This document shows, one piece after another, positions 20,635 through 35,128 of a stretch of 51,930 nt of DNA. Source of the DNA: Promineifilum sp. (GTDB taxonomy: Bacteria; Chloroflexota; Anaerolineae; Promineifilales; Promineifilaceae); contig JAGOZU010000012.1 in the NCBI GenBank assembly GCA_018058545.1, positions 1 through 51,930 on the forward strand. The letters are read 5' to 3'. The position numbers and the translations under genes are program-made. The first letter of the stretch is position 1; each line of letters opens with the position of its first letter. Under the pieces are notes generated by a model that was given only the letters and a program-made list of their open reading frames with translations, was not told the DNA's origin and ran no database searches.

Positions 20635-22491
20635 ATGAGCAATCAAAACAACGATCGGGAAGACGGCTGGCGTGTCAAGTTACTCACGGAGGTGGGCGAA
20701 CTGCGAACTTCGGTGGTGGACGGCTGGCGGGCCATCGGGATCGATATACGCAACGGAATACGGCGGATGCGCAAGGAGCGCCTCGATTACCTGGTGCTGC
20801 CTGTGGGCGGATCCATGCCGGAACTGGACGCCCCGCCCCGGAGGTTTCCGATGAGCTGGCTGCCTTTCCCCGGCCGGCCGTTGAGCATGGCCTGGCTGCA
20901 TGACCGGCTGCGTGCGGTCACCGACGCCGATAACGTGCGCGGCGTCATCTTTGTTTTCACCGGCTTTAGCGCCGGACTGGCGACCCTGCAAAATTTCCGA
21001 ACGGCCGTCGCGCGGTTGCGGGCAGCGGGCAAGGAGGCCATCGTCTACACACCCTATCTCGACCTGGCCCATTACTATGCCGCCACTGCCGCCGATCGCA
21101 TCATCGCTCCACCCGGCGCCCGGTTCGATGTGCTGGGTCTCTATACCGAGATCACCTTTTTGAAGGACGCGCTGGCTCGCGCCGGCCTGGAGGTGGACGT
21201 CGTCCAAATCTCGCCCTACAAGACCGCTTTCGACCGCTTCAGCCAATCGGATATCACCCCCAAGCATCGCGAGCAACTGGATCGGTTGCTGGATGACCAA
21301 TACGACATGCTGACGGCCGACATGGCCGCCGGCCGCGGGCTATCCCAAGATGAAATCAAATCGCTGATCGACCGCGCTCCTTTCTCCGTCGAGGAGGCCC
21401 ACCGGTTGGGGCTGATCGACCACGTCGCCTACGAGGACGAATTGCGCACCTTGTTGGGCCGACAAATGAGACCCGCCCCGGCGAACGACCCGGCTGCGTC
21501 ATCCGGCAAGGGGGATGAGACCGGGGCAAGCCGGGGAACGCGGCCGCCCGAAGCCAGGCTGATGACCTGGAAAGGGGCGCGCCGGGTACTCATCCAGCGG
21601 ACACGTCGCCAGGAACGCCGATTCATCGGAGTTGTATCTCTCGAGGGCATGATCACGACGGGAACCAGCAACAAGCCACCCATCAAACTGCCCCTCCCTC
21701 TCATCGGCAGCGAATCCGCGGGCGATCAGACCGTCGTGGGGCAGCTGCGACGAGCGGAGAAGATGCCCAATATGGCGGCGCTGATCTTCCACGTCGATTC
21801 CGGCGGCGGCTCGGCGTTGGCCTCCGACCTGATCGCCCGGCAGATCGAGCTGTTGGCGGCCAAAATGCCGGTCGTCATCTACATGGGCAACATGGCGGCC
21901 TCGGGCGGCTACTACGTGGCCGCGCCGGCCAGCCATATCATGAGCCAGGAGGCTACCCTCACCGGCTCCATCGGGGTCATCACCGCCCGATTCAGCTCGG
22001 CGGGACTCTACGAGCGGCTATCCGCCAATCGGGTCACTCTGGAACGCGGCGAACACGCCGGTCTTTATCGAGACACCAGCCCCTGGACCGAGGCCGAGCG
22101 CGCCATCTTTCAGCAGACAATCGTCGAGATCTACGATCAATTCAGGGGAATTGTGAGCAAGAATCGGGGGATGACATCTGACGAAGTGGATGAGATCGGC
22201 CTGGGCCGGGTGTGGACCGGGCGCCAGGCGTTGTCGCGCCGGTTGGTGGACAGCCACGGCGACTTCCTGGACGCGGTCAAAAAGGCGGCCGAACTGGCCG
22301 CCTTACCTACCGATGATCTCTATGCTATTCCGGTGCTGGTCCTGTCTTCACGCGATCCCGGCTACACCTTGCCGGCCGCGGGCCACTCGCAGGTTATCGA
22401 GGAATTGACCCGGTTGCTCTCGGGCGAGCAGCTGAGATCGCTGAACGGTCGGCCACTGCTTCTCCTACCATACGATTTGCGGCTCCGGTGA
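20635..22491 (+). CDS. sppA: signal peptide peptidase SppA, long two-domain type
   Basis: S49-family serine protease degrading cleaved signal peptides or membrane fragments. The 618-residue protein has two S49 domains like the 67-kDa E. coli enzyme. The likely general base is K196 (ISPYKTAFDRF, N-domain) and the nucleophile S423 (NMAASGGYY, C-domain), followed by TLTGSIGVITARF. Unlike E. coli SppA I see no N-terminal membrane helix, so it may be soluble or peripheral. A linker rich in charged and small residues joins the domains. Its 3' end overlaps the convergent acetyltransferase gene by 27 bp. Confidence 0.9.
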   Translation: MSNQNNDREDGWRVKLLTEVGELRTSVVDGWRAIGIDIRNGIRRMRKERLDYLVLPVGGSMPELDAPPRRFPMSWLPFPGRPLSMAWLHDRLRAVTDADNVRGVIFVFTGFSAGLATLQNFRTAVARLRAAGKEAIVYTPYLDLAHYYAATAADRIIAPPGARFDVLGLYTEITFLKDALARAGLEVDVVQISPYKTAFDRFSQSDITPKHREQLDRLLDDQYDMLTADMAAGRGLSQDEIKSLIDRAPFSVEEAHRLGLIDHVAYEDELRTLLGRQMRPAPANDPAASSGKGDETGASRGTRPPEARLMTWKGARRVLIQRTRRQERRFIGVVSLEGMITTGTSNKPPIKLPLPLIGSESAGDQTVVGQLRRAEKMPNMAALIFHVDSGGGSALASDLIARQIELLAAKMPVVIYMGNMAASGGYYVAAPASHIMSQEATLTGSIGVITARFSSAGLYERLSANRVTLERGEHAGLYRDTSPWTEAERAIFQQTIVEIYDQFRGIVSKNRGMTSDEVDEIGLGRVWTGRQALSRRLVDSHGDFLDAVKKAAELAALPTDDLYAIPVLVLSSRDPGYTLPAAGHSQVIEELTRLLSGEQLRSLNGRPLLLLPYDLRLR

Positions 22492-23070
22492 ATAGTCCGC
22501 GGCCGTATCCAGCCAATCCTTGACCCGGCTTTTCGGTTCGCGAAGATGAATGGTCACCATGGAATAGGCGCCTTCCGACAGCCGTTCCAGCCGGTAATTT
22601 AGTTTCAGCAGCATGGCCCAGGTGGCCTCGTTACTGTTCTGCACGGTCCCGAGAAGCTGTTCGTAGCCATCGTCCTCAGCATATCGAATGAGCAGACGCA
22701 GCAGGGCAGTTCCAATACCCTGCCGATGGAGATCATCGCGGACCGAGACGGCGATTTCGGCCTGCAAGGGATTTAACTCAACATAACGAGCCGCGCCAAC
22801 CAGCGCGCCTTCATGACCGGGCAGATCGGCAAAGGCCGCCAACCCGTAGCTGGTCGTTTCCACCAGGTGGGCGATTAGTTCGGCCTCCGACCAGATTCGG
22901 TCCATGGGCACATTATCGGCCGACTGCATGAACCGGCTATAGCGACTGCCCGAACTCATGTGTTCAAACAGGTCAACCAGGTATGGAGCATCATCAGGCC
23001 CCAGGGGACGAACGCGCACCGTCAGGCCCGATTTGGTCTGAAATGTATCGATCGTACTTGTGGTTCTCAT
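22465..23070 (-). CDS. GNAT-family N-acetyltransferase
   Basis: A 201-residue protein with one GNAT fold. It has TVRVRPLGPDDAPYLVDLF, the acetyl-CoA motif VRDDLHRQGIGTALLRLLI and QNSNEATWAMLLKLNYRLE. N-terminal SRYSRFMQ resembles acetyltransferases found in protein-acetylation loci, but the substrate is unknown. ATG 23070 is preferred to a start at 23151, since a 19-bp palindrome lies just upstream (23082-23100) and would otherwise be coding. The palindrome suggests repressor control. Confidence 0.85.
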   Translation of the reverse strand: MRTTSTIDTFQTKSGLTVRVRPLGPDDAPYLVDLFEHMSSGSRYSRFMQSADNVPMDRIWSEAELIAHLVETTSYGLAAFADLPGHEGALVGAARYVELNPLQAEIAVSVRDDLHRQGIGTALLRLLIRYAEDDGYEQLLGTVQNSNEATWAMLLKLNYRLERLSEGAYSMVTIHLREPKSRVKDWLDTAADYSPEPQIVW

Positions 23071-23394
23071 ATTTATCCTATTATGACGCATTGCGTCATA
23101 CAAAGAATACCATGACACAAAATAAAAATCAATACCCCGGCCGCTTTCCAACGCGATGTTAACGGAGGCAAGGTATACAGGCTATTAAGGTGAAGCCTTA
23201 ATCAGGCATGGAGGATCCCACTGTGCTCCTCGGACAGTCGTCCATAACCCAGGTGGGGATCATCCATCCGATATGCAACCTTTACCGGCCTGAAGCGTAA
23301 TGTACGGTAGCGAGACAAGCTGATATTATTACGTGTCGGAAGCGTCGTATTTCCCCGGCATCGACACAGTTTTTGGCGAGACAAGGAACAGAAC
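23071..23394 (+). other. 324-bp divergent intergenic region
   Basis: No gene is visible between the acetyltransferase and the dynamin-like gene. It holds the palindrome at 23082-23100, a 7-bp inverted repeat ATTAAGG/CCTTAAT (23184-23190, 23196-23202) and the ribosome-binding site AAGGA before 23395. The promoter of the long plus-strand operon should lie here, but I see no convincing -35/-10 pair. Confidence 0.6.
23082..23100. promoter_or_regulatory. 19-bp perfect palindrome, likely operator
   Basis: Arms TATGACGCA and TGCGTCATA surround one central T. It lies 12 bp upstream of the acetyltransferase ATG and overlaps a possible minus-strand -10 CATAAT. The symmetry suits a dimeric repressor; no regulator gene is adjacent. 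Confidence 0.6.
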
Positions 23395-26040
23395 ATGAGT
23401 AAAAACGACAACGATTCCCTGCGAGCATCACTGGCAGAGCTACCCTTCATCAGTCCGGCTCAGGTAGAGCAGTGGGTCGATCTGCAACAGACGATCGATC
23501 GCACGCGAGATTATCTCATCCGGGCCGTTCCCCAGGCACAGCACAGCATTGACGAAGCCCAGAAAATCCTGGCCCAGCGTACCTACACCCTCGTCTTCTT
23601 CGGCGGCACGGGCGTGGGCAAGAGCACCCTGATCAACGCGCTGCTCGGTCGCAACCTTTTGCCGACCGGCGCGGTGACGGCCGTCACCGGCACCATCGTC
23701 TATATCGAGCAAGCCGATGAGAACGAGGCCGAGTCGCTCGTCCTGAACTACTGGAACAAGGATGAATTCGCCGACCGCGTCCGTCGCCTGTGCCAGTTGG
23801 CCGAAATCGACAGCTTCGACATCTCCAATTCCGGGGAGCGCGAGCAAGCCAAAAAGGATATCGAGGCGCTGGAAGAGTCCCGCAAGGACGAGGCCAAGAC
23901 CGAGCGCGACGAATTTCTGGATATCATCCTCGACTGCATCGAATCCTACGAGAACAACAAGGCTCTCTACAAGGAGGGCGCTCCGGCTCCGGTCAACCTG
24001 TCCCTCGATAACCCGGATTCGCTCAAGCACTTGCGCGAGGACAGTTTCAAGGGCAGCAATCAGCGTCAAATTCGCCTGATTCGGTCGGCCACCTTCCGCA
24101 TTCACCCCAAGGCGGGCGTCCCGAACCTGCTGATGAACGGTTATTTGCGCATCGTCGACGTGCCCGGCCTGGGCGCGGGCATGCGCCTGCACGAAGCCAT
24201 CACGCTGGAAGAGATGAAGCGCGAGGACGCGATGGTCGTTCTGGTGACCGATGCCGGTCGCCAGAGAGTTGACGAGATGAAATCGCTTTCGGCCGTCAAC
24301 TGGATCAAGGAAAATCGGTTGTTCGGGCTTAGCGGCGGCGATCTGGACGAGGCGGCCTCGAAGATCTTCCTGGCCGTCAACGGCGCCAATGTCCGCCAGG
24401 CGTTCGACCGGCTCAACTCCGGCTTGCCCGAGGCTGAACTGGAAGTCAAGGACGTGACCCGCTATATCGCCCCCAACTATTGGGAGCGCTACAGCAACCG
24501 CGGGCACAATCGACCCTATTTCCTGGTGATGGCTCCTCCGGCGCTCTATGTGCAAGACCCCGAACACGCCCCTGAGGAATTTGCCAGCGAGACCGAGCGC
24601 ATCCTGAAAGTTTTCAAGGACCAACTCGGCACGGTGGCCACCAAGGACCCGCTGGAGCCGGAGACGAAAGAGGCGCTGCTGAAGCTGAGCGAAGTGCCGC
24701 TGTTGCGCGAGAGCCTGATTCATTTCATCCAGCATGAGCGCGTCCGCAGCCAGTTGCGCGAGGCGGCCACCCGCACCCGCAACTCCCTGCAGGCGCTACG
24801 ATTCTATTATGAGAAACAACTGGCCGCCCGCGGCGTCCAGCCCCCCTTCTCCACCAGTTGGGAGCAACTGCAGGAGCGACGCTACGAGAATGTCCTCAAC
24901 CGGCAGCAGAAGGAATTGCCACGGGCGTTCCACAATGCCCTGTTGGAACTGAGCAGCCGCACCAACAACGACGAGCGTTTCCGCCAGATGCTGCGGCCGA
25001 CGCTGAACGGCATCAAGGGCATGGTCCAGGATTCCGTCCAGCGCGAGGTCGAGATGCTGCTGGAGAACTACGGCACCGAGTTCTGGGACGGCCGCGACGT
25101 CACCTACGACAACCTGATCTGGGGCACGAGCGGCATCGAGGTGCCGATCAAGCGCATCCTCTTCCAGGTCGAACTGGTGATGCAGGATGCCGTCTCGAAG
25201 TTCATGCCCGAGGCGGGCGACATCATGGCCGCCGAACTGGAGCGGACACTGGAGGCGCACGAGATTCTCTCCCGCCTGGACCGTTCGGCCTACGGGCAAG
25301 AATATACCTATATCGTTCCCGGTGAAGCCGAGAATGCCATATCGCTCAATGATGCCTATCGGACGATCATCAGCCGTATCGGCCGCAACTTCCGCTACAT
25401 CTGCCAACAGGCGACGATGTACGAACTGATGAGGAACGACCGCTCGGTTCATTCGCGACTCTATGCCGGAGAGCAGGAACTGGCCCTCCCGACCAACGAG
25501 CGCTTGCTCGACGTAGCCCTCTATGGGCCGGAGCGAGTCGCGCGCGAGATCGCCGCGTCGATGCCGCAACTCAGCGCCGCGACGGGCAATGAAGCGACCC
25601 CGCAACCGGTCGAGGAGCCGATCGAGATCAACATCCTGGACACGCCCATCGGCGGAACAACCCCCGACTTCGACATCAGTTTCCTGGGCGAGGGTCAGAC
25701 AGCCCCGGTCGCGGCCGATCTGGAGGCCAGCTACGCCGACCTGCTGGACAACGTAGCCGTCAAGGTGAACCGCATCTTCGCCGCCATCATCGACGATCTG
25801 TTCAGTGACGACGATTTGCTGCCGCGCTTGCGCCGCCTGTTCTGGCTGGAGGCCACCAAGGCCGAGCGAGACTTCAACAATCTGCTGGTCAAGCCCATGC
25901 TGCGCCAGCACGACCGCAATCTCCACAAGCCCGAGCTGCGCAAGGCGCTGGAGGTCGATCTGGAATCCGTCTCCGATATGGAAGAGTTGATGCGCGTCTG
26001 GGACGGTCTGCATCAGTTGGAATCCGGGATGACGATCTGA
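23395..26040 (+). CDS. dynamin-like large GTPase
   Basis: An 881-residue GTPase of the bacterial dynamin-like type, likely membrane-acting. The P-loop is G70-GTGVGKST-78, and the switch II motif is D255-VPGLG. It has the long insertion between G1 and G3 seen in dynamin-like proteins and a mostly helical, stalk-like region from residue 440 on. A low-complexity linker (about 720-780) precedes a final helical segment. I see no clear transmembrane paddle, so membrane contact is not proven. It is the first gene of the co-directional run leading into the ubiquitin-type genes; the next gene is 88 bp away. A different large regulatory GTPase role is possible. Confidence 0.82.
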   Translation: MSKNDNDSLRASLAELPFISPAQVEQWVDLQQTIDRTRDYLIRAVPQAQHSIDEAQKILAQRTYTLVFFGGTGVGKSTLINALLGRNLLPTGAVTAVTGTIVYIEQADENEAESLVLNYWNKDEFADRVRRLCQLAEIDSFDISNSGEREQAKKDIEALEESRKDEAKTERDEFLDIILDCIESYENNKALYKEGAPAPVNLSLDNPDSLKHLREDSFKGSNQRQIRLIRSATFRIHPKAGVPNLLMNGYLRIVDVPGLGAGMRLHEAITLEEMKREDAMVVLVTDAGRQRVDEMKSLSAVNWIKENRLFGLSGGDLDEAASKIFLAVNGANVRQAFDRLNSGLPEAELEVKDVTRYIAPNYWERYSNRGHNRPYFLVMAPPALYVQDPEHAPEEFASETERILKVFKDQLGTVATKDPLEPETKEALLKLSEVPLLRESLIHFIQHERVRSQLREAATRTRNSLQALRFYYEKQLAARGVQPPFSTSWEQLQERRYENVLNRQQKELPRAFHNALLELSSRTNNDERFRQMLRPTLNGIKGMVQDSVQREVEMLLENYGTEFWDGRDVTYDNLIWGTSGIEVPIKRILFQVELVMQDAVSKFMPEAGDIMAAELERTLEAHEILSRLDRSAYGQEYTYIVPGEAENAISLNDAYRTIISRIGRNFRYICQQATMYELMRNDRSVHSRLYAGEQELALPTNERLLDVALYGPERVAREIAASMPQLSAATGNEATPQPVEEPIEINILDTPIGGTTPDFDISFLGEGQTAPVAADLEASYADLLDNVAVKVNRIFAAIIDDLFSDDDLLPRLRRLFWLEATKAERDFNNLLVKPMLRQHDRNLHKPELRKALEVDLESVSDMEELMRVWDGLHQLESGMTI

Positions 26041-26128
26041 CGAGGACGAGAGCTATCGGCCGCCGAACGGCGTGATTCGAGGCAACTCGATCGACCACCG
26101 GCGGCCGTCCTCCAATTGGGAGTAAGCG

Positions 26129-27331
26129 ATGCAAGAATCCGCCCAAAAGCAAATACAGGCCTTCCCGGGCAAGGCCCAGCAGGTCGCGTTTGCCGGTCGC
26201 CTGCTCGAATGGCTGAATCATGACCTCAATCCCCACGGCGAGCCGCTGGCCGAATCGCGGGCCAGGGCGCTCTTGCTGGCGGCTAATGTGCTGGATGAGC
26301 CGACGCGCCACAGCTTCGCCCAGGCGGTCGATTCCGAGCAGGGGATGCGGCTGGCGCTGTATGGCCTGCTGAGCGAAAGCGGCCTGTCCGAAAACGAAGA
26401 AGTCGCCGCCCTGGCAACCGCCGCCGCGGGCCTGTCCGGCACGGCCGACAAGGCCCCTGCCCCGTCGTGGCTGGCGCTGGCCGTGGCCGCGTTCGCCTGG
26501 CGCAGCGATTTTCTCCTCGACAGTTTCGATCCCGCCTCGCCGCCCAATCCCTACAGTCCGGCGGGACAGGTGTTGAAGCGCGCGGCCTACTTCATGCGAC
26601 AGGAAGTTCAACGGAGCGCCACCGAACGCGACAAGCTGAGCCGCAAACTGGCCCATGTCACGGGCGGTGCGCCGTCGCTCGACACCCTGAATCCGGCAGG
26701 GCCGATTCCGCCGTTGCCGCCCTTCTATCGGCCGCCCATCCCCGAGAACTACCCCGAATATAACCCCGGCATCGAGGTGTCGCCGGATGAACTAAGCCAT
26801 CCCGCAATGCCGTCGCGCCAGGGATCGATCAGCATCACCGATGATGACCTGGCCGGAACGGGGACCGGCGCGCCGATCATCCAGCCGCCGTTGCACATCG
26901 ATCTGTCATCGGCCGAGCCACCGGCACGGCCGACAACGCTGCCGCCGGCGCCGCCACGCCCCCATGTGGTGATGCCCAACGCGGCCGTGGCGGCACATTC
27001 CGGGGGCGCTCGGCCCAAAAAGCGCGGCCGCAACGAGATGAAGGCGACCAAACTCCAGATCGTCGTGCAGGAGCGGCCGGACGGGCCGGGGCTGTACGGC
27101 TTGCAGGTGCGCGTCAGTTCGCGCGGCATCCGGCGCTATGTGGCCGGCACCACCAACAAGGACGGCGAGTTTGTTTGCGAGCTGCCGGTGCGAACGGACA
27201 CGGGCCTGACCTATGACGTCGACGTGACCTGGCCGCGGGAATACGGCAATGAAGTCGAGCGCAAGTCGATCACGCTGAACGCCGACCGGACCCACTTCAC
27301 GCTGCCATTCTATCGCGCCCTGAAAGGTTAA
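26129..27331 (+). CDS. uncharacterised protein with helical N-terminus and C-terminal beta-sandwich domain
   Basis: I do not recognise a family for the whole protein. Residues 1-190 are helical and alanine-rich with no signal peptide. Residues 190-305 are a proline-rich linker (PPLPPFYRPPIPENY and later PPARPTTLPPAPPRP). Residues 308-400 look like a transthyretin/carboxypeptidase-regulatory-like beta-sandwich: KLQIVVQERPDG, GTTNKDGEFVCELPV, ITLNADRTHFTLPFY. It lies between the dynamin-like and CAP genes, 13 bp before the latter, which implies co-translation. A scaffold or adaptor role is only a guess. Confidence 0.75.
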   Translation: MQESAQKQIQAFPGKAQQVAFAGRLLEWLNHDLNPHGEPLAESRARALLLAANVLDEPTRHSFAQAVDSEQGMRLALYGLLSESGLSENEEVAALATAAAGLSGTADKAPAPSWLALAVAAFAWRSDFLLDSFDPASPPNPYSPAGQVLKRAAYFMRQEVQRSATERDKLSRKLAHVTGGAPSLDTLNPAGPIPPLPPFYRPPIPENYPEYNPGIEVSPDELSHPAMPSRQGSISITDDDLAGTGTGAPIIQPPLHIDLSSAEPPARPTTLPPAPPRPHVVMPNAAVAAHSGGARPKKRGRNEMKATKLQIVVQERPDGPGLYGLQVRVSSRGIRRYVAGTTNKDGEFVCELPVRTDTGLTYDVDVTWPREYGNEVERKSITLNADRTHFTLPFYRALKG

Positions 27332-27343
27332 GCCTGGAACGAT

Positions 27344-27991
27344 ATGGCCGAGGGCGACCGCTTGCAGATTACCGCGGAGGATATCGAATCGCAGGGTCAT
27401 CGCGTCACTACCCCTCCGGTTCTGACCATCCGGCCGGAGGATGTGCCGGCGGCCGCGCTGCTTCCCGTGTCCCGGTCGGGCCACACCCTGCTGATCACGT
27501 CGGAGGACGTCGCCGCCTTTGAACCGGCCGGCGAGGAAGTCGTGGCCGTGCTCGAACAAAAGGCTTTTGCGTTGGTCAACGAAGCGCGCTCTGAACACCT
27601 CCCGAAATGGATGAGGCGCGGGCCGTTGCAGTGGCACCCGGCGCTGGCTCTGGCCGCCCGCCGTCATTCGGCCGACATGCTCGAACGACGCTATGTCGCC
27701 CACACGACGCCGGAAGGGATCACCGTCGGCAAACGGCTGGATCGCGACCATATCAGCTATCTGGCCTGTGGCGAGAACATCGGCGTTGTCTACGGCCCGG
27801 CCAGCCACGGCGAGCGTGGCGTGCTGGAGATCCACGCGGCTTTCATGAACCAGCCGCGCCGATTGACGAACCATCGCGCCAACATCCTTAATCCGGTATG
27901 GACCCACGTGGGCATCGGCGTCGCCTATGCGCCCGAGGGGCAGATCATCGTGACCCAGAACTTCGTGGCCACGCTGACTCGGCCGGCATAG
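27344..27991 (+). CDS. CAP/SCP-domain protein without signal peptide
   Basis: Residues about 70-215 are a CAP domain: LVNEARSEH, ALALAARRHSADMLER, YVAHTTPEG, ACGENIGVVYG, NHRANILNPVWTHVGIGV. The putative site residues His (RRHSADM), Glu (GENI) and His (NHRANI) are present. Most bacterial CAP proteins are exported, but I see no signal peptide or membrane helix here, so this one appears cytoplasmic. The N-terminus has three copies of a short motif (LQITAEDIES, LTIRPEDVPA, LLITSEDVAA). It lies between the beta-sandwich protein and the E1-like gene. Activity is unknown. Confidence 0.85.
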   Translation: MAEGDRLQITAEDIESQGHRVTTPPVLTIRPEDVPAAALLPVSRSGHTLLITSEDVAAFEPAGEEVVAVLEQKAFALVNEARSEHLPKWMRRGPLQWHPALALAARRHSADMLERRYVAHTTPEGITVGKRLDRDHISYLACGENIGVVYGPASHGERGVLEIHAAFMNQPRRLTNHRANILNPVWTHVGIGVAYAPEGQIIVTQNFVATLTRPA

Positions 27992-28046
27992 AACCCGGGT
28001 TGTTCAGAAAAACCCGGTTACGAGGAAAATCAGACAGAGGAATTTC

Positions 28047-29228
28047 ATGACGGATTCGGAATTAATCGTTATCACCGACCCCGACAGCGACCGGTACCAT
28101 ACCTTCGGCTACATCAGCTGGTGGCAGCAGGAAGTCGTGCGCAACGCCACGGTGCTGGTGATCGGGGCGGGCGCGTTAGGCAACGAAGTGCTCAAGAATT
28201 TGGCCCTGATGGGCATCGGCAACATCCTGATCGCCGATTTTGACACCATCGAGGACAGCAATCTCAGCCGTTCGGTGCTGTTCCGGACAAGCGACCGCGG
28301 CCGCCGCAAGGTCGACGCCGCCGCCGACTCCGTCAAGGAGATCAACCCGGACGTGAAGGTCAAGGCCTGGCACGGCGATATCAACTTCGAGATGGGGTTG
28401 GGCGTGTTCCGCCACGTCGACGCCATCGTCGGCTGCCTGGACAATCGCGAGGCGCGCCTGTCGATCAATCGCTTCAGTTGGGCGGTCAATCGGCCGTGGG
28501 TCGATGGGGCCATCCAGGAGTTGATGGGCATCGTCCGCGTCTTCCGGCCGGGTGAGGGGGCCTGCTACGAGTGCACCCTGACGGATATGGACTATCAGAT
28601 CATCAACCTGCGCTACTCCTGCCCGCTGCTGGCGCGACAAAACATCCTGCAAGGCAAGGTGCCGACGACGCCGACCAGCGCGTCCATCGTCGCCGCCTTC
28701 GAGACCCAGGAAGCGCTCAAGCTCATCCACGGCATGGAAGTGCAGCCCGGCAAGGCGCTGATGATCAACGGGCTGACCAACGACATCTACACGACGGAAT
28801 ATCCGGTGAAAGAGTTTTGCATGAGCCATTCGACGCTCGACCCGATCGTGGAGTTGCCGGAGGCGACGGCCGTGGGGACGACCCTGGCCGGCCTGCTGGC
28901 GCTGGCCCGCGAGCGGCTCGGCCCGGAGGCCGTGCTGGAGTTCGACAGCGAGCTTGTGGTCTCGATGGTCTGCGGCGCTTGCGGCAACGAGGAGCCGATC
29001 TTCCAGCGGATGGCGCGGCTGTATGAAGAAGCGGCCGCCTGCCCCAATTGCGGGGCCAAGCGCGAGATGCATCTGACCCACCGCATCGACGGGTCGGAGG
29101 ATTTCCTCGGCCGCACGTTGGCCGAGGTCGATGTGCCGCCGCTCGGTATTATCCGGGCGCGAAACGGCAGTGAACGTTTATACCTGGAGTTGACGGGAGA
29201 CAAGGCGACGTTTTTGCAGTTCGCCTGA
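28047..29228 (+). CDS. E1-like ubiquitin-activating enzyme (ThiF/UBA fold)
   Basis: Would adenylate the C-terminus of the neighbouring ubiquitin-fold protein and pass it to E2. The nucleotide site is G40-AGALG-45, with DFDTIEDSNLSRS and GRRKVDAA. ACYECTL (C173, C176) matches the ACxECTL zinc region of eukaryotic UBA3, and C192 (RYSCPLL) lies where UBA-type E1s have the catalytic cysteine. A second cysteine set (C309, C312, C332, C335) forms a zinc ribbon. The final 50 residues (LGRTLAEVDVPPLGIIRAR onward) resemble a ubiquitin-fold domain that recruits E2. These features are closer to eukaryotic E1 than to MoeB/ThiF. RBS AGAGGA fits the ATG at 28047. Confidence 0.92.
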   Translation: MTDSELIVITDPDSDRYHTFGYISWWQQEVVRNATVLVIGAGALGNEVLKNLALMGIGNILIADFDTIEDSNLSRSVLFRTSDRGRRKVDAAADSVKEINPDVKVKAWHGDINFEMGLGVFRHVDAIVGCLDNREARLSINRFSWAVNRPWVDGAIQELMGIVRVFRPGEGACYECTLTDMDYQIINLRYSCPLLARQNILQGKVPTTPTSASIVAAFETQEALKLIHGMEVQPGKALMINGLTNDIYTTEYPVKEFCMSHSTLDPIVELPEATAVGTTLAGLLALARERLGPEAVLEFDSELVVSMVCGACGNEEPIFQRMARLYEEAAACPNCGAKREMHLTHRIDGSEDFLGRTLAEVDVPPLGIIRARNGSERLYLELTGDKATFLQFA

Positions 29229-29322
29229 CCCGATGAAAAAAGGCCGGGGCTTCCGGCTGCAACCGCAACCCCCATAATGCGTATTGTGTTATGAATCAAA
29301 ACGATGGAGGCTTTTGAATAAA

Positions 29323-29589
29323 ATGGCGAGTACAAAGGTAATCATTTACGATCCGACCGGTTCCAAGAAGACCCCGGTTGAACTGCCCGACGACGTGCCG
29401 ATGCGCCGGCTGATCCCCGCTCTGGTGAGCAAGATGGGACTGCCGACAACGCAGGGCGCCAATCCGATCACCTATCGGTTGGACCACCGCTCCTCCGGCA
29501 AGCGACTCGGCGATGAGGAATCATTGCGGGACGCGGGCGTGAAGGAAGATGACATCCTCAGCCTGTTCCCCGAAGTTACGGCCGGCTAA
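29323..29589 (+). CDS. YukD-like ubiquitin-fold protein
   Basis: An 88-residue beta-grasp protein: STKVIIYDPTGSKKTPVELP, MRRLIPALVSKMGLP, ITYRLDHRSSGKRLGDEESL and DAGVKEDDILSLFPEV follow the ubiquitin strand-helix-strand order. It ends T-A-G, so the last two residues are Ala-Gly rather than the Gly-Gly of classic modifiers. Its position between E1 and E2 makes it the presumed modifier. The YukD family is otherwise best known from type VII secretion loci, of which there is no sign here. ATG 29323 is chosen; GGAGG at 29306-29310 is 12 bases away, and a TTG at 29314 is too close to it. Confidence 0.88.
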   Translation: MASTKVIIYDPTGSKKTPVELPDDVPMRRLIPALVSKMGLPTTQGANPITYRLDHRSSGKRLGDEESLRDAGVKEDDILSLFPEVTAG

Positions 29590-29693
29590 GGTCCGGGATG
29601 GCCATTCGGGTTTGCGAACGATTATCGGCCGCAACGCTCGGCGCCTTCATCCGACCCATCCGGGTGCGAACGCATCCGTCCACGGTACCGAAC

Positions 29694-29754
29694 ATGCCCT
29701 TCCGAAGACACGCCCGACGCCGGTAAGCGTAGGGGGCGGTCGCCGGAAGGGCAT
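29694..29754. repeat. 11-bp inverted repeat between the ubiquitin-like and E2 genes
   Basis: ATGCCCTTCCG (29694-29704) and CGGAAGGGCAT (29744-29754) are perfect complements around a 39-base GC-rich loop. No T-run follows, so it is not a standard terminator. It stands in the only sizeable gap (197 bp) inside the E1-to-JAMM block and could set different mRNA levels for the modifier and the E2. Confidence 0.65.
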
Positions 29755-29786
29755 CTGATTCAGGCTATTACAGGTAGGAGTGTCCC

Positions 29787-30320
29787 ATGCCCTTTGACAT
29801 TCGTGAAACCCGATTGCGCAACGACTACCAGCGTGTGCGCGATCTGGCGAATCGGAGTGAACTGATCCATGTCGTCAGAACTGAAGGCGATCCGCCGGAG
29901 AAGTATCTGATCCGTTACACCTGCCGCGGCGTGGAAGGCCTCTCCGGTTCAAACCAGCCCGTCTACCGCGAGCAGCATGATGTGACCATCTATCTGCACG
30001 CGGAATACCCGCTGAAACAACCGCAACTCAAGTGGGTGACGCCCATCTTCCACCCCAACATCCACGTCACCGGCGCGGTTTGCATCGGCGCGTGGTGGCC
30101 GGCCAAGACGCTGGACGAGCTTCTCCTGACGCTGGGCGAGATGATCCAGTACAAGAATTACGAGCCGCGAGACCCGATGAATTCCAAGGCGGCCGCCTGG
30201 GCCATCCAGCGCAAATCGCTGTTTCCCGTCGACCGCCGGGAGCTGAAGGGGCAATCCGTGGCCGACCTGATCGTCATTCGCGACGAGGAGTCCAATGACC
30301 TCGGTATCAAAATCGGCTGA
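29787..30320 (+). CDS. E2-like ubiquitin-conjugating (UBC-fold) protein
   Basis: A 177-residue E2. YPLKQPQLKWVTPIFHPNIH contains the HPN motif (residues 89-91), and the active-site cysteine C99 follows in GAVCIG eight residues after the Asn. WWPAKTLDELLLTLGEMI matches the E2 segment after the cysteine, and NYEPRDPMNSKAA continues as in eukaryotic enzymes (DPLN/DPMN). It should accept the modifier from E1 and transfer it with a RING protein. GGAG precedes ATG 29787. Its 3' end overlaps the first JAMM gene by 26 bp, so the two are translationally coupled. Confidence 0.94.
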   Translation: MPFDIRETRLRNDYQRVRDLANRSELIHVVRTEGDPPEKYLIRYTCRGVEGLSGSNQPVYREQHDVTIYLHAEYPLKQPQLKWVTPIFHPNIHVTGAVCIGAWWPAKTLDELLLTLGEMIQYKNYEPRDPMNSKAAAWAIQRKSLFPVDRRELKGQSVADLIVIRDEESNDLGIKIG

Positions 30321-31560
30321 TCCGGCCGGCGACTTGCCGCCTCAACCGGAGCCTACGGCGGCCGAAGCGACACAATACGACACGGTGGCCTCCCATCGCC
30401 AGGCGCTGACGGGGCTGCCTTTCCGCCAGCCGCCCGCCCCGCTGTCCAATTGGCTGAATCACGGCGAAACCCCCGGCGAGGGGCAACCGGTCGTGCTGAT
30501 TCACCAGACGGCCGTTCTTCAGGTGATCGCCCATAGCCGCAGCAACATGGATTGCGAACTGGGCGGCGCGCTGCTGGGCCATGCCTATCGCTACCGGAAC
30601 GGCACCATTGTCGAGGTGAAGGCTGCGCTGCCGGCCACAAGCGCCGACCACGGCCCGGTCCATTTCACCTTCTCGGCCGATTCCTGGTCGAAGCTCCACC
30701 GCGACCGCGCGGCTCATTACCCGAATCTGGACATCATCGGCTGGTTCCACACGCACCCCGACCTGGGTGTTTTTTACTCCAGCGACGACGTGGTGGTCCA
30801 TTCGGCCGCTTTCACATTGCCCTGGCACATCGGCCTGGTCGTCGACCCCGTGCGCGACGAGGCCGCCTTCTTTGGCTGGGTCAATGGCAAACTGGCGCCG
30901 CTGAACGGCTTCCACGAGCTGCCCGAGCGACAGCCTGAGAGCCAGGTTCCGTGGCGAGCCGTGCGAACGACGGTGTGGGATCATCCCTATGAGACGGACT
31001 CCCGCACGCAGGCCGGGGACGACAGTCATGTCGTGCTGGCTCGCAGCGGACGGCCGTTATTTTCCGGTCGCGAGTTGGGCCTGATCGCCTCGGCCGCAGC
31101 CTTATTACTGTCTTTTTTTTTAATCTTCGGCGCCGTTCTACCCCTAATGAACCGGGTCAACCTCCTGGAGACGACGGTTCTTAATTTGGCCCAGGCGTCA
31201 CTGACCGACAGCAACAGCCTGACCTGCCCCGACCCGCGACTGCGCATCCTCTCCCCGCTCAGCGGGCAGGGGTATCCCGTCGGATCGGCCATCCAGATCG
31301 TCGGCACGGCCGAATATCCCGGCGCGCGGCGCTACCAGGTCGATGCCCGGGCCGCCGGGGCCGGGCAATGGGGGATGATCGGCCGCTCGAACCGGGACAC
31401 CCGCCTTGGCGAACTGACCCAATGGGACACAGCCGGACTGCCGGCGGGCAGCTATGAATTACGCCTGTCGCCGGTCGACGCCAACAATATTCGCCTGGCG
31501 GACAGCAGCCCGTGCGTTATCTCGCTCAGCCTGATGGCCACAAGCGCCGGCCAACCATAA
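30295..31560 (+). CDS. membrane-anchored JAMM/JAB metalloprotease
   Basis: Predicted deconjugase. The N-terminal MPN domain has the upstream Glu (CELGGALLG) and the zinc motif H152-T-H154-P-x6-S162-x2-D165 (FHTHPDLGVFYSSDD). A strong membrane helix lies near residues 262-286 (LGLIASAAALLLSFFLIFG). The remaining 135 residues form a beta-rich, Ig-like domain (RILSPLSGQGYPVGSAIQIVG) likely outside the cytoplasm. Catalysis would occur on the cytoplasmic face. It overlaps the E2 gene and is followed four bases later by a second JAMM gene. Cleavage of isopeptide bonds is inferred from the family. Confidence 0.92.
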   Translation: MTSVSKSADPAGDLPPQPEPTAAEATQYDTVASHRQALTGLPFRQPPAPLSNWLNHGETPGEGQPVVLIHQTAVLQVIAHSRSNMDCELGGALLGHAYRYRNGTIVEVKAALPATSADHGPVHFTFSADSWSKLHRDRAAHYPNLDIIGWFHTHPDLGVFYSSDDVVVHSAAFTLPWHIGLVVDPVRDEAAFFGWVNGKLAPLNGFHELPERQPESQVPWRAVRTTVWDHPYETDSRTQAGDDSHVVLARSGRPLFSGRELGLIASAAALLLSFFLIFGAVLPLMNRVNLLETTVLNLAQASLTDSNSLTCPDPRLRILSPLSGQGYPVGSAIQIVGTAEYPGARRYQVDARAAGAGQWGMIGRSNRDTRLGELTQWDTAGLPAGSYELRLSPVDANNIRLADSSPCVISLSLMATSAGQP

Positions 31561-31564
31561 CGAT

Positions 31565-32638
31565 ATGACCGACAAGACCGATTACACTTACGCAGCACAG
31601 ATCACGCTCCATCTGCCGGGCAAGGGCAACGCCGCATCGGTCGTCGTCACCCTGATCCCGACCGACCGGGTGCCGCTGAACGGCCAGGCCAAGCCGCTCT
31701 CGGAGTGCACCCCGGCCGAATTGAGCGCCTATGGCGAAGCCCTGGAAGCCGAAGTCTGGGACGCCTATGAGGCGATCTCTTTGCTCGACTTGCGCGAGCG
31801 GTCGGCCGTCGATATTCGTGTCACGGCCCTCGACGACGGCGGGCAAGCCGTCGATGAGGTAACGGATTGGCTCGATCAGGCAATCGTTTTGCCGATAGCG
31901 GCGGAGGCCGAACCCGCCATCACCAGCGAAGACCAACCCGCGACAAACGAGGGCGAAGAAGCCGGGGAGGCGCCCCCGTCCCCGGCCGAGCCGGCGATAA
32001 CGATCATTCCGACAACGACCGAGGCGGCCAAGAAGGCCAAACCCGCCCCACAAGAGGAACCGCCCCCCCAAGCCAAACTCGAGCCGACGACGATCATCCC
32101 CAGCCAGGCCCGTGTGCGCGTGGCCGGCGGGCGATTGCCTCTGGCGGAGGCGGGCGGCGCGGCGGCCGACATTTTGCTCGACGAAGCCCCGTTGCGAGCC
32201 ATGCAAGCCCACGCGCTGAGCAGCCTCGATCGCGAGGTGGCCGGGGTCATGGTCGGCCGCCAGCCGGAGAAGCAGCCGGACGGCCGCTATCTGGTCCACA
32301 TCATCGACAGCATCGTGGCAAAACACACCGTCATGCAGGGCGCGAGCGTCACCTATACCCCCGAAAGCTGGCGCTACATGACCGACACACTGTGGGAGCG
32401 CTACCCCGACGAATCCGCGGTGATCGTCGGCTGGTACCACACTCATCCGGGGTTTGGCATCTTTCTGTCGGGCATGGATCTGTTCATCCACCAGAACTTT
32501 TTCACGCAAGTCTGGCACGTCGCCTATGTGCTGGACCCGCGAGCGCGCACCAGCGGCTTTTTCTGCTGGAATCGGCCGAAGACGAAGGTTAATCGTTATG
32601 ATTTCATGTGGCCGGAATGGTCGGCCGGTTCGTGGTAG
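31565..32638 (+). CDS. JAMM/JAB metalloprotease, CSN5/Rpn11-like
   Basis: The C-terminal MPN domain has REVAGVMVG (Glu) and the complete motif H292-T-H294-PGFGIFL-S302-GM-D305. GWYHTHPGFGIFLSGMD is strikingly like eukaryotic CSN5 and Rpn11 (GWYHSHPGFG-type). Residues 1-100 are a small alpha/beta domain with strands like ITLHLPGKG, followed by an acidic, proline-rich linker to about residue 190. No membrane helix is present, so it is probably the soluble partner of the membrane-anchored JAMM protein just upstream. Both JAMM centres look intact, so neither is an obvious pseudoenzyme. Confidence 0.92.
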   Translation: MTDKTDYTYAAQITLHLPGKGNAASVVVTLIPTDRVPLNGQAKPLSECTPAELSAYGEALEAEVWDAYEAISLLDLRERSAVDIRVTALDDGGQAVDEVTDWLDQAIVLPIAAEAEPAITSEDQPATNEGEEAGEAPPSPAEPAITIIPTTTEAAKKAKPAPQEEPPPQAKLEPTTIIPSQARVRVAGGRLPLAEAGGAAADILLDEAPLRAMQAHALSSLDREVAGVMVGRQPEKQPDGRYLVHIIDSIVAKHTVMQGASVTYTPESWRYMTDTLWERYPDESAVIVGWYHTHPGFGIFLSGMDLFIHQNFFTQVWHVAYVLDPRARTSGFFCWNRPKTKVNRYDFMWPEWSAGSW

Positions 32639-32678
32639 CCGTCCGAGAGATTAAGCGGCATGGAAACAGAGGATGGAT

Positions 32679-33206
32679 ATGATGTATAATCAAAATCCGG
32701 AAGCGCTGCACGGCGGCATGGCGACGACGGCCAACCCGCCTCATCATAACGGCCGGGTTCCCGCTTCCGGGTTTCGAGTCATGGACGAACAAGAGTACCC
32801 TCTGATTCATATCACGGACAACGACATCGCCGAGGCCAATCGGCTCAGTCTGTCGTGTCCCATTTGCGGCAGCGCGGTTGAGGACCACACGGACGGCGCG
32901 GCCCTGGTGCCGGTCGTTTGCGATTCTTGCGGCACGCTCTATCATCGCGCCTGCTGGGAGCAGAGCGGCGGCAAGTGCGCCGTGCTGGGCTGCGGCAGTA
33001 CCAAATTCCACGTCCACGGCATGGACATGGGCCCGGTGCTCAAGGTCAAATACACCGATCTCGGCCCCCACTCGGCCAACGGCCAATCCTCCACCAGCGC
33101 CCGGAATCGCAAGCTGAAAGATGAGCAGCGGCGACAGGTGCGCAACATGACCCTGTTCCAGCGTTTCTGGCGCTGGCTGTTCGACCAGATCAAGATCAAT
33201 CAATAA
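32679..33206 (+). CDS. prokaryotic RING/treble-clef finger protein, candidate E3
   Basis: A 175-residue protein with one zinc finger module: CPICGSAVED, then VVCDSCGTLYHRACWEQ and GGKCAVLGC. The CxxC, CxxC-xxxx-H-xxx-C and C-x4-C spacing is that of bacterial RING-type fingers linked to ubiquitin-like operons. A disordered N-terminus and a basic C-terminal helix with aromatic residues (LFQRFWRWLFDQIK) flank it; the helix could bind membrane or a partner. The start at ATG 32679 is chosen from three nearby ATGs because GAGG lies six bases upstream. E3 activity is inferred from context. Confidence 0.85.
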   Translation: MMYNQNPEALHGGMATTANPPHHNGRVPASGFRVMDEQEYPLIHITDNDIAEANRLSLSCPICGSAVEDHTDGAALVPVVCDSCGTLYHRACWEQSGGKCAVLGCGSTKFHVHGMDMGPVLKVKYTDLGPHSANGQSSTSARNRKLKDEQRRQVRNMTLFQRFWRWLFDQIKINQ

Positions 33207-33211
33207 CAGTG

Positions 33212-33233
33212 AGGCCGCTCATTCAAGCGGCCT
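33212..33233 (+). terminator. hairpin between the two RING genes
   Basis: AGGCCGCT (33212-33219) pairs with AGCGGCCT (33226-33233) around CATTCA, followed by only three T residues and an A. It may be a weak terminator or a processing site that lowers expression of the following gene. Confidence 0.5.
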
Positions 33234-33245
33234 TTATCCTCATCC

Positions 33246-33776
33246 ATGATTCGCGCCCACCACATCGCCGAAACGTCAGCTTTTCTGGGGCAGACGTGCG
33301 CCTTGTGCAAGCAGGAATTCGTCCTCGGCGATGAGATCGTCATCTGTCCGGAGGACGGCAGCCGCCACCACGCCGGCTGCTGGCAGGCCAATGGCAACAA
33401 GTGCACGGCTTATGGCTGCACCGGAGCGGGAGCGATCGGCGTGCCGGAGCAACCGCAAGGGCGTCCGGTTCGGGAGCGCCCCGGCAGGCGGCCGCGCGTC
33501 ATCACCCAGAGGCCGGAGCAACCCCATGCCCGCCCGACCGCGGCCCGCCCCATCCCCAACGCGACTGGCTCCAAGGTGCGCACGCTGCCGGCCGGCAGTG
33601 TCGGCTGCGCCCGTGCCTGCCTTATCATCGCCATCGCCCTCGCCATCGTGCTGTTTGCCGTGGGCTGCTTTGGGCTGTGGGCCATCGCCGACTATCTGAT
33701 GCTGAATTTGTTCCATTTGCCGTATCGTCCGCCCCTGGACACGGGAGTAGTGATTATGTCGCTGCTGGCTGTGTAG
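33246..33776 (+). CDS. membrane-anchored RING/treble-clef finger protein
   Basis: The N-terminal finger reads TCALCKQEF, IVICPEDGSRHHAGCW and GNKCTAYGC, giving a CxxC ... C ... HHxxC ... C-x4-C set parallel to the preceding gene. A proline- and arginine-rich linker (residues 65-115) leads to a hydrophobic helix at about 120-145 (CLIIAIALAIVLFAVGCFG). It would place a candidate E3 at the membrane, matching the anchored JAMM protein. No ribosome-binding site is evident before ATG 33246, and the hairpin at 33212-33233 precedes it. It is the last gene of the run. Confidence 0.8.
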   Translation: MIRAHHIAETSAFLGQTCALCKQEFVLGDEIVICPEDGSRHHAGCWQANGNKCTAYGCTGAGAIGVPEQPQGRPVRERPGRRPRVITQRPEQPHARPTAARPIPNATGSKVRTLPAGSVGCARACLIIAIALAIVLFAVGCFGLWAIADYLMLNLFHLPYRPPLDTGVVIMSLLAV

Positions 33777-35015: not shown

Positions 35016-35128
35016 TCTCCCTATTCTCCTGTAGAGCATACTCGACTGAGGCCGCTAAAGGGCGCCATGAAGTGCCTATGACACTTGCCAATCCGCTCCG
35101 GCCAGGAGGCCAACAACCTGGCAACCCC

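What the first reader, a model, noticed from the sequence alone, without database searches (positions are those of the whole stretch)
23395..33776. Complete bacterial ubiquitin-like pathway linked to a dynamin-like GTPase and a cytoplasmic CAP protein
Ten plus-strand genes encode a dynamin-like GTPase, a beta-sandwich protein, a CAP-domain protein, an E1 with UBA-type features, a YukD-like modifier, an HPN-motif E2, two JAMM proteases and two RING-type fingers. Seen: all catalytic motifs are intact. Known: Burroughs, Iyer and Aravind predicted from comparative genomics that some bacteria pair YukD-like Ubls with E1, E2, JAB and RING proteins. Inference: the GTPase, one JAMM and one RING protein place this pathway at a membrane, possibly for envelope remodelling or defence.
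Basis: partly seen in the sequence, partly recalled or inferred. Interest (0 to 1): 0.87.

Follow-up and report, generated by a model that had tools for sequence, protein, structure and literature searches.

The report
Bacterial ubiquitin-like pathway with dynamin
These bacteria, a family of Chloroflexota, carry a complete ubiquitin-style protein-tagging pathway built into one conserved gene block with a membrane-shaping dynamin-like protein, and a short shared sequence signal ties the two halves together, so it looks like everyday cell machinery rather than a phage defence.

Summary
In detail: ten plus-strand genes encode a dynamin-like GTPase, a helical/beta-sandwich protein, a CAP protein, E1, YukD-like Ubl, UBC-type E2, two JAMM peptidases and two Prok-RING fingers, with near-invariant active-site residues (RING2 has Asp for one zinc Cys). 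A Ubl-E1-E2-JAB-RING core of this kind was predicted by Burroughs et al. 2011 (recalled; paper not held), so the core is not new. New here: (1) in this Promineifilum-like family it is as widespread as rpoB (Ubl 49/52 genomes, dynamin 48/52, rpoB 49/51) and mainly vertical; (2) the Ubl evolves more slowly than RpoB (median identity 91% v 81%); (3) the dynamin occurs in 17/17 sampled family genomes and 0/281 others of the class; (4) a short motif, [IL]x[IV]T-x-x-D[IL], lies in disordered regions of RING1 (34/34), the beta-sandwich protein (24/28) and CAP (16/17), is almost absent from the other operon proteins, and had no other conserved carrier in a scan of this genome. It links the upstream block to the conjugation core, probably as a SIM-like docking site. 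I favour a housekeeping Ubl pathway acting at the membrane with the dynamin; defence is not supported. CAP is not universal. Substrates and the motif's partner are unproven.

The parts
22465..23151 (-). GNAT-family acetyltransferase, divergently transcribed; conserved neighbour of the dynamin gene
   Evidence: Pfam Acetyltransf_1 1.4e-10; relatives beside dyn in 11 loci and, including where dyn has moved away from E1, in 7 of the 15 dyn regions
23395..26040 (+). dynamin-like GTPase (881 aa)
   Evidence: Dynamin_N 3.2e-13; Foldseek best solved matches SynDLP 1.1e-9 and BDLP on a low-confidence model; 48/52 family genomes, 0/281 outside
26129..27331 (+). helical domain (1-174), disordered linker (175-302), C-terminal transthyretin/CnaB-like beta-sandwich (303-395); no Pfam family
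   Evidence: AlphaFold model, Foldseek; 46/52 family genomes
26828..26851 (+). docking motif ISITDDDL in the disordered linker
   Evidence: motif in 24/28 orthologues; linker shuffles expect 0.28 of 27
27344..27991 (+). CAP-domain protein without signal peptide or TM helix, probably cytoplasmic
   Evidence: PF00188 1.4e-11; no TM helix in 17/17; adjacent in 17 of 37 readable copies
27362..27385 (+). docking motif copy 1 (LQITAEDI) in CAP N-terminus
27422..27445 (+). docking motif copy 2, degenerate (LTIRPEDV)
27488..27511 (+). docking motif copy 3 (LLITSEDV)
28047..29228 (+). E1-like activating enzyme: adenylation domain, catalytic Cys192, C-terminal zinc-ribbon Cys pairs
   Evidence: ThiF 4.8e-52; best PDB relatives UBA7/UBA1/UBA2/UBA3; residue counts
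29323..29589 (+). YukD-like ubiquitin-like modifier, 88 aa, ending ...FPEVTAG
   Evidence: YukD 1.9e-10; 62 of 88 positions at 97% or more identity; 43 of 47 complete copies end exactly at AG, 4 carry tails of 1-5 aa
29694..29754 (+). RNA hairpin in the ubl-E2 gap (GCCCTTCC...GGAAGGGC), seen in the genus; possible attenuator or processing site
   Evidence: z -2.44; 3 compensatory pairs among 6 genus sequences
29787..30320 (+). UBC-type E2, HPN motif and catalytic Cys99
   Evidence: UQ_con 1.8e-14; yeast Ubc1 best PDB relative with Cys aligned; 47/47
30295..31560 (+). JAMM peptidase 1: cytoplasmic JAMM domain, one TM helix (about 264-282), extracytoplasmic C-terminal domain
   Evidence: Prok-JAB/JAB about 1e-8; TM in 38/38; catalytic set 46/46
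31565..32638 (+). JAMM peptidase 2 (soluble), Rpn11-like
   Evidence: JAB 2.9e-9; best solved relative Rpn11/PSMD14 3.3e-10
32673..33206 (+). RING finger protein 1 (putative E3), C4HC3, soluble
   Evidence: Prok-RING_1 2.2e-10; eight zinc ligands 34/34
32805..32828 (+). docking motif IHITDNDI before the RING finger
   Evidence: 34/34 orthologues
33039..33062 (+). second, relaxed motif LKVKYTDL after the RING finger
   Evidence: 25/34 orthologues match the relaxed pattern
33246..33776 (+). RING finger protein 2 with one TM helix; one zinc Cys replaced by Asp
   Evidence: Prok-RING_1 1.7e-10; TM 24/24; Asp37 in 24/25

Best explanation
A housekeeping ubiquitin-like conjugation pathway that works at the cytoplasmic membrane with a family-specific bacterial dynamin. 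E1 activates the exposed C-terminal glycine of the YukD-like Ubl, passes it to the UBC-type E2, and RING1 (with membrane-anchored RING2) directs it to substrates; the soluble JAMM2 and the membrane-anchored JAMM1 trim the few Ubl precursors that carry tails and reverse the modification. RING1, the beta-sandwich protein and CAP carry a shared linear motif ([IL]-x-[IV]-T-x-x-D-[IL], acidic in the middle) in disordered segments, so they dock on one common partner encoded in the operon, most likely the Ubl itself in a SIM-like way. This brings the ligase, the dynamin-associated beta-sandwich protein and CAP to Ubl-modified complexes at the membrane, where the dynamin remodels it. SHOWN by computation: the gene set, intact active sites, near-universal and mainly vertical distribution, extreme Ubl conservation, the motif and its restriction to three proteins, TM helices, absence of a recognisable proteasome and of WXG100. 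INFERRED: actual conjugation, the Ubl as the motif's partner, the dynamin as effector or target.
For: Intact catalytic residues. E1 and E2 nearest in PDB to eukaryotic UBA1/2/3/7 and UBC enzymes, JAMM2 nearest Rpn11. Ubl, dynamin and rpoB equally widespread in the family. Identity correlates with RpoB identity 0.84 for E2 and 0.89 for dyn; gene trees share 10 of 24 (E2) and 6 of 11 (dyn) splits with rpoB against about 0.3 by chance. Ubl median identity 90.9% against RpoB 80.5%. Dynamin 17/17 in the family, 0/281 elsewhere in the class. Conserved gene order and block movement. Motif: RING1 34/34, beta-sandwich 24/28, CAP 16/17; 0-1 in each other operon protein; background 0.10 per 1000 aa. Of 51 pattern hits in the own genome, the other in-frame ones lie within unrelated proteins, and the one acidic-context candidate is not conserved in the genus. 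No proteasome/HslV and no WXG100 hit. Ubl tails after invariant AG in 4 of 47. Three genomes with no detected dynamin or beta-sandwich gene keep the RING1 motif, which points to a partner in the E1/Ubl/E2/JAMM core.
Against: No biochemistry. YukD of B. subtilis is reported not to be conjugated (cited in PMC1779556). The Ubl ends in AG, not GG. RING1 could act without E3 activity. The three genomes without dynamin/beta-sandwich are only 77-82% complete, so losing both may be an assembly effect. The dynamin could be a neighbour that never meets the Ubl. The dynamin model is of low confidence (mean pLDDT 63.6). Part of the motif resembles a helix N-cap (T-x-x-D), so it might be a structural rather than a docking element. 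E1 and Ubl identities correlate less well with RpoB (0.60 and 0.44).
Confidence: 0.55

Rival explanations
1. An anti-phage or stress defence island of the Bil/Bub kind, with the dynamin as a membrane effector (like LeoA-type defence GTPases).
For: Bil and Bub operons combine Ubl, E1, E2 and a peptidase and are linked to immunity. PADLOC E1-E2, JAB and LeoBC/LeoA models match parts of the proteins.
Against: Present in essentially every family genome, as often as rpoB, mainly vertical, one copy, conserved order; Ubl evolves more slowly than RpoB, unlike arms-race genes; no relative in viral contigs for the Ubl and only one distant 45% match over part of E1; flanks are ordinary genes: S49 and M32 peptidases, CorC-like transporters.
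Confidence: 0.12
2. The pathway is a conjugation system as described, but the upstream dynamin/beta-sandwich/CAP genes are a separate membrane function that only shares the region; the shared motif binds a partner unrelated to the Ubl, for example the dynamin or a phosphothreonine reader.
For: In about 8 of 36 readable genomes the block lies apart from the E1 core. The motif contains T-x-x-D, which fits FHA ligands, and sister systems carry FHA proteins.
Against: The same motif occurs in RING1 of the core and in the block, and no other conserved carrier was found. Ser replaces Thr in several RING1 copies, which FHA domains tolerate poorly (established knowledge). No FHA gene lies in this operon.
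Confidence: 0.25
3. The YukD-like protein acts non-covalently or as a sulfur carrier, with E1 as a ThiF/MoeB-type adenylating enzyme, not as a protein modifier.
For: B. subtilis YukD is not conjugated; ThiF/MoeB models match the E1.
Against: A canonical UBC E2 with HPN...Cys in 47/47, two JAMMs and RINGs in the same operon, a catalytic Cys in E1, no WXG100 in the genome, and tailed precursors needing trimming at AG.
Confidence: 0.06

Closest known systems
Prokaryotic E1-E2-JAB-RING systems with YukD-like Ubls (Burroughs, Iyer and Aravind 2011, Mol BioSyst 7:2261; not held, from own knowledge; citation seen)
   Same: Same core parts: YukD-like Ubl, E1, UBC-type E2, JAB peptidases, Prok-RING_1 fingers, some with TM helices
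   Different: Dynamin, beta-sandwich and CAP proteins, the shared docking motif, family-wide near-universality and a Ubl slower than RpoB are, as far as I can tell, not described there (paper could not be read)
Caldiarchaeum subterraneum ubiquitylation operon (PMC5654768, PMC6043591)
   Same: Single operon with Ub, E1, E2, small RING E3 and an adjacent Rpn11-like JAMM; C-terminal tail of Ub trimmed by JAMM
   Different: Archaeal, Ub with GG and pro-peptide, no dynamin and no shared docking motif reported in the text read; here the Ubl is YukD-like and ends in AG
Bil and Bub operons
   Same: Bacterial Ubl + E1 + E2 + peptidase operons
   Different: Sporadic and associated with immune regulators; BilB has a CEHH-type E2 motif and BilD a two-domain E1; no RING reported in the texts read
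Sister systems in other Anaerolineae families (L119-L129)
   Same: E1, Prok-RING, YukD-like Ubl, E2, JAMM in one cluster
   Different: Mostly Ubl-E2 fusion plus free Ubl, E1 with a GntR winged-helix domain in the two examined, FHA and VWA proteins; no dynamin hit and no motif in the RINGs
SynDLP and other bacterial dynamins (PMC10104851)
   Same: GTPase plus long helical region; best Foldseek matches
   Different: 13% identity over a poor global superposition; different gene context
SUMO-interacting motifs / STUbL ligases such as RNF4
   Same: Short hydrophobic plus acidic motif outside the RING of a ligase, repeated in some partners
   Different: No sequence homology; partner unproven; invariant T-x-x-D is not part of the SIM consensus

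Membership tests
Prokaryotic E1-E2-JAB-RING-YukD conjugation systems | Co-encoded E1 with catalytic Cys, E2 with HPN and Cys, JAB with E/HxH/S/D, Prok-RING_1, Ubl with terminal Gly | tested here: met
Prokaryotic E1-E2-JAB-RING-YukD conjugation systems | Covalent transfer of the Ubl to protein | not testable with these tools
   Needs biochemistry
Bil (bacterial ISG15-like) / Bub defence operons | E2 of CEHH type (Bil) and sporadic presence linked to immune regulators | tested here: not met
   E2 is HPN...C UBC type; distribution near-universal in one family. The Bub Ubl and E2 sequences themselves were not compared
YukD / T7SS (Wss) component | YukD fold by profile | tested here: met
   PF08817 1.9e-10
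YukD / T7SS (Wss) component | WXG100 partner in the genome | tested here: not met
   No PF06013 hit; control rings in B. subtilis
Dynamin superfamily | Dynamin GTPase domain with intact P-loop (GGTGVGKST) and VDVPGLG switch | tested here: met
   Dynamin_N 3.2e-13; residues invariant or nearly so
Dynamin superfamily | Helical stalk, oligomerisation, membrane remodelling | tested here: inconclusive
   Helix-rich model of low confidence; SynDLP/BDLP best; activity not testable
SUMO-interacting-motif-like docking | Hydrophobic plus acidic linear motif in disordered regions of several partners | tested here: met
SUMO-interacting-motif-like docking | Binding to the beta2-alpha1 groove of the Ubl | not testable with these tools
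   Complex prediction not available
Ubiquitin-proteasome degradation | 20S proteasome or HslV in the genome | tested here: not met
   No PF00227 hit in a 98% complete genome; 10 of 14 controls ring

The most novel reading that the evidence does not exclude
A bacterial housekeeping Ubl pathway with its own SIM-like code: a linear motif shared by the RING ligase, a dynamin-linked scaffold and a CAP protein reads the Ubl, and conjugation controls a bacterial dynamin at the membrane without a proteasome. It would parallel eukaryotic STUbL/SUMO logic and ubiquitin control of dynamin-family GTPases.
Probability: 0.3. Interest if true: 0.92.

Novelty: new variant of a known kind. Interest (0 to 1): 0.74.

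Why it matters
The bacterial Ubl systems with tested function that I could read about are linked to immunity and patchily distributed. This one is as universal in its family as rpoB, has a modifier that changes more slowly than RNA polymerase, and has a family-specific dynamin and a shared docking motif. That makes it a strong candidate for a bacterial ubiquitin system in core cell biology, outside defence and without a proteasome, and it gives concrete residues to mutate.

Tried and rejected
Defence island: rejected as the main reading on distribution and conservation. T7SS YukD: rejected, no WXG100. Proteasomal tagging: no proteasome/HslV hit. FHA ligand reading of the motif: kept as a rival, weakened by Ser variants. 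Search for other motif carriers in the own genome: 51 DNA hits; in-frame ones lie within unrelated proteins and the one acidic-context candidate (L088, VVITEADV) is not conserved in the genus; several of the 51 hits give no in-frame motif in an ORF of 60 aa or more. Burroughs 2011 and the 2024 Nature paper on bacterial ubiquitination could not be read. phmmer of RING1 against the PDB found nothing. The dynamin fold model is too poor for stalk comparison.
Full report
WHAT IS THERE. The ten genes are real and lie as stated on the plus strand, mostly with small gaps; the largest, 197 bp, lies between ubl and E2, and E2 and jamm1 overlap. Pfam identifies Dynamin_N, CAP, ThiF, YukD, UQ_con, JAB twice and Prok-RING_1 twice. 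The second protein has no Pfam family; an AlphaFold model from 23 orthologues shows a confident helical domain (1-174), a disordered linker (175-302) and a confident C-terminal beta-sandwich whose solved look-alikes are transthyretin- and CnaB-type folds. The Ubl starts at 29323 and is 88 aa long. A GNAT acetyltransferase on the opposite strand (22465-23151) belongs to the conserved neighbourhood.

ACTIVE SITES. Counted over family orthologues: E1 nucleotide loop and catalytic Cys192 invariant where readable; E2 HPN and Cys99 47/47; JAMM1 full catalytic set 46/46; JAMM2 35-36 of 36-37; RING1 eight zinc ligands 34/34. RING2 carries Asp at one ligand in 24/25. The E1 zinc-ribbon Cys pairs are kept in 33/43 and lost together in most others. 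The profile of E1 finds eukaryotic UBA7, UBA1, UBA2 and UBA3 before MoeB and ThiF; E2 finds yeast Ubc1 first with the catalytic Cys aligned; JAMM2 finds Rpn11 and CSN5. Of 47 Ubl copies with a readable end, 43 stop exactly at ...TAG and four have tails of 1-5 residues after AG, the pattern expected for a modifier whose glycine must be exposed, with a peptidase to trim the rare precursors (compare the Caldiarchaeum system).

DISTRIBUTION. A scan of 84,980 species genomes with E1 gave 39 loci, all Chloroflexota (that scan reaches close relatives only). In the window's own family the Ubl is found in 49/52 genomes, the dynamin in 48/52 and the beta-sandwich protein in 46/52, with 17/17, 17/17 and 16/17 among good-quality genomes; rpoB itself is found in 49/51. 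In 298 genomes of the class the dynamin profile hits 17/17 family members and 0/281 others. CAP is optional: 17 of 37 readable copies have it next to E1. Because Ubl and dynamin are both near-universal in one family, their co-occurrence alone counts as one evolutionary event; order, block movement and the shared motif are the stronger evidence of a link.

ORDER AND INHERITANCE. Gene order dyn - beta-sandwich - (CAP) - E1 - Ubl - E2 - JAMM1 - JAMM2 - RING1 - (RING2) is the same in every family copy as far as contigs allow. The beta-sandwich gene lies directly upstream in 28 of 36 readable E1 copies; elsewhere dyn and beta-sandwich (with CAP in some) stay together as a block. Median pairwise identities are Ubl 90.9, E1 77.5, dyn 76.5, E2 75.1, RING1 60.6, CAP 53.3, JAMM2 52.6, beta-sandwich 50.6, JAMM1 47.0%, against about 80.5% for RpoB in the same genome pairs. 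So the modifier changes more slowly than RNA polymerase. Correlation with RpoB identity is 0.84 for E2 and 0.89 for dyn, and FastTree trees share 10 of 24 (E2) and 6 of 11 (dyn) splits with rpoB against 0.2-0.3 by shuffling: mainly vertical. No relative of the Ubl and only one distant partial E1 match were found in viral contigs.

THE SHARED MOTIF. While reading the translations I saw the same short string in three unrelated proteins. A regular expression, [ILVMFY].[IV][TS]..[DN][ILVM], matches RING1 34/34, beta-sandwich 24/28 and CAP 16/17 orthologues, and 0/23 dyn, 0/43 E1, 0/49 Ubl, 1/47 E2, 0/46 JAMM1, 1/40 JAMM2, 0/25 RING2. Within-segment shuffles expect 0.28 of 27 linkers, 0.08 of 17 CAP N-termini and 0.16 of 32 RING1 N-termini; observed are 24, 12 and 32. 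The consensus is E/R-x-P-P-[IL]-x-I-T-[DE]-[DEN]-D-[IL]. CAP carries up to three copies before its domain; RING1 has one before the finger and, in 25/34, a relaxed second copy after it. In the beta-sandwich protein the motif sits where model confidence is below 50 and most other positions vary. A pattern scan of the own genome gave 51 DNA hits; the in-frame hits outside this operon lie within unrelated proteins, and the only one in a similar acidic context is not conserved in the genus. The regular expression was chosen after seeing the window's five copies, so the window itself is not a test; the orthologue counts are.

MECHANISM. Three proteins that share an operon-restricted linear motif most likely dock on one product of the same operon. 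The hydrophobic-plus-acidic character, its position outside a RING finger, and tandem copies in CAP resemble SUMO-interacting motifs (for SUMO groove features), and the Ubl is the most constrained protein of the set, so the Ubl is my first candidate. Three genomes with no detected dynamin or beta-sandwich gene keep the RING1 motif, which argues that the partner is in the core, although these genomes are only 77-82% complete. JAMM1 and RING2 are membrane-anchored in every orthologue, CAP and the others are not. There is no recognisable proteasome or HslV and no WXG100. I therefore propose reversible, non-proteasomal Ubl modification at the membrane that organises the beta-sandwich protein, CAP and the dynamin. 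Conjugation, the motif's partner and the dynamin's role are inferred.

KNOWN CONTEXT. The core (YukD-like Ubl, E1, E2, JAB, RING) matches what Burroughs, Iyer and Aravind predicted in 2011; I could not read that paper and take it from my own knowledge, from the Pfam family Prok-RING_1, and from its citation in PMC11354881. Iyer et al. 2006 discuss YukD only in the ESAT-6 export setting and report that B. subtilis YukD is not conjugated. Bil and Bub are different, patchy and immunity-linked. Sister systems in other Anaerolineae families carry Ubl-E2 fusions, FHA and VWA proteins and, in the two examined, a GntR-type domain on E1, and lack the motif and the dynamin. I file the finding as a new variant of a known kind.

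LIMITS. Nearly all genomes are metagenome-assembled and many contigs are short. The dynamin model is poor. No interaction could be modelled. E1 and Ubl correlate less well with RpoB than the other proteins do.

Noticed in passing
L119-L129 (e.g. L129:4523-11201, L120:444-9089): Sister Ubl systems in other Anaerolineae families: a GntR winged-helix domain N-terminal to E1 in both examined, Prok-RING, a YukD-Ubl fused to E2 plus a free Ubl, JAMM, an FHA protein and a VWA protein. A transcription-factor/E1 fusion is unusual.
   Followed up: partly
L124:3812-15164: An intermediate system (G315) with separate Ubl and E2, E1 with zinc ribbon, three RING-like proteins and two large JAMM proteins.
   Followed up: no
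window 29694-29754: RNA hairpin between ubl and E2, seen in the genus with three compensatory base pairs among six sequences; could set Ubl:E2 stoichiometry.
   Followed up: partly
window 33987-35039 (-): Leucine-rich-repeat protein (LRR_1, LRR_8) downstream of the operon, not seen as a recurring neighbour in relatives.
   Followed up: no
window 35242-38681 (-): VWA_CoxE and DUF5682 gene pair; VWA proteins also sit in the sister Ubl systems, but this pair is not conserved next to the operon in relatives.
   Followed up: no
L037:9947-11140: An E1 orthologue (71%) that has lost the zinc-ribbon cysteines and is not next to the Ubl core on its contig; the same Cys pairs are lost together in about 10 of 43 family copies.
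   Followed up: partly
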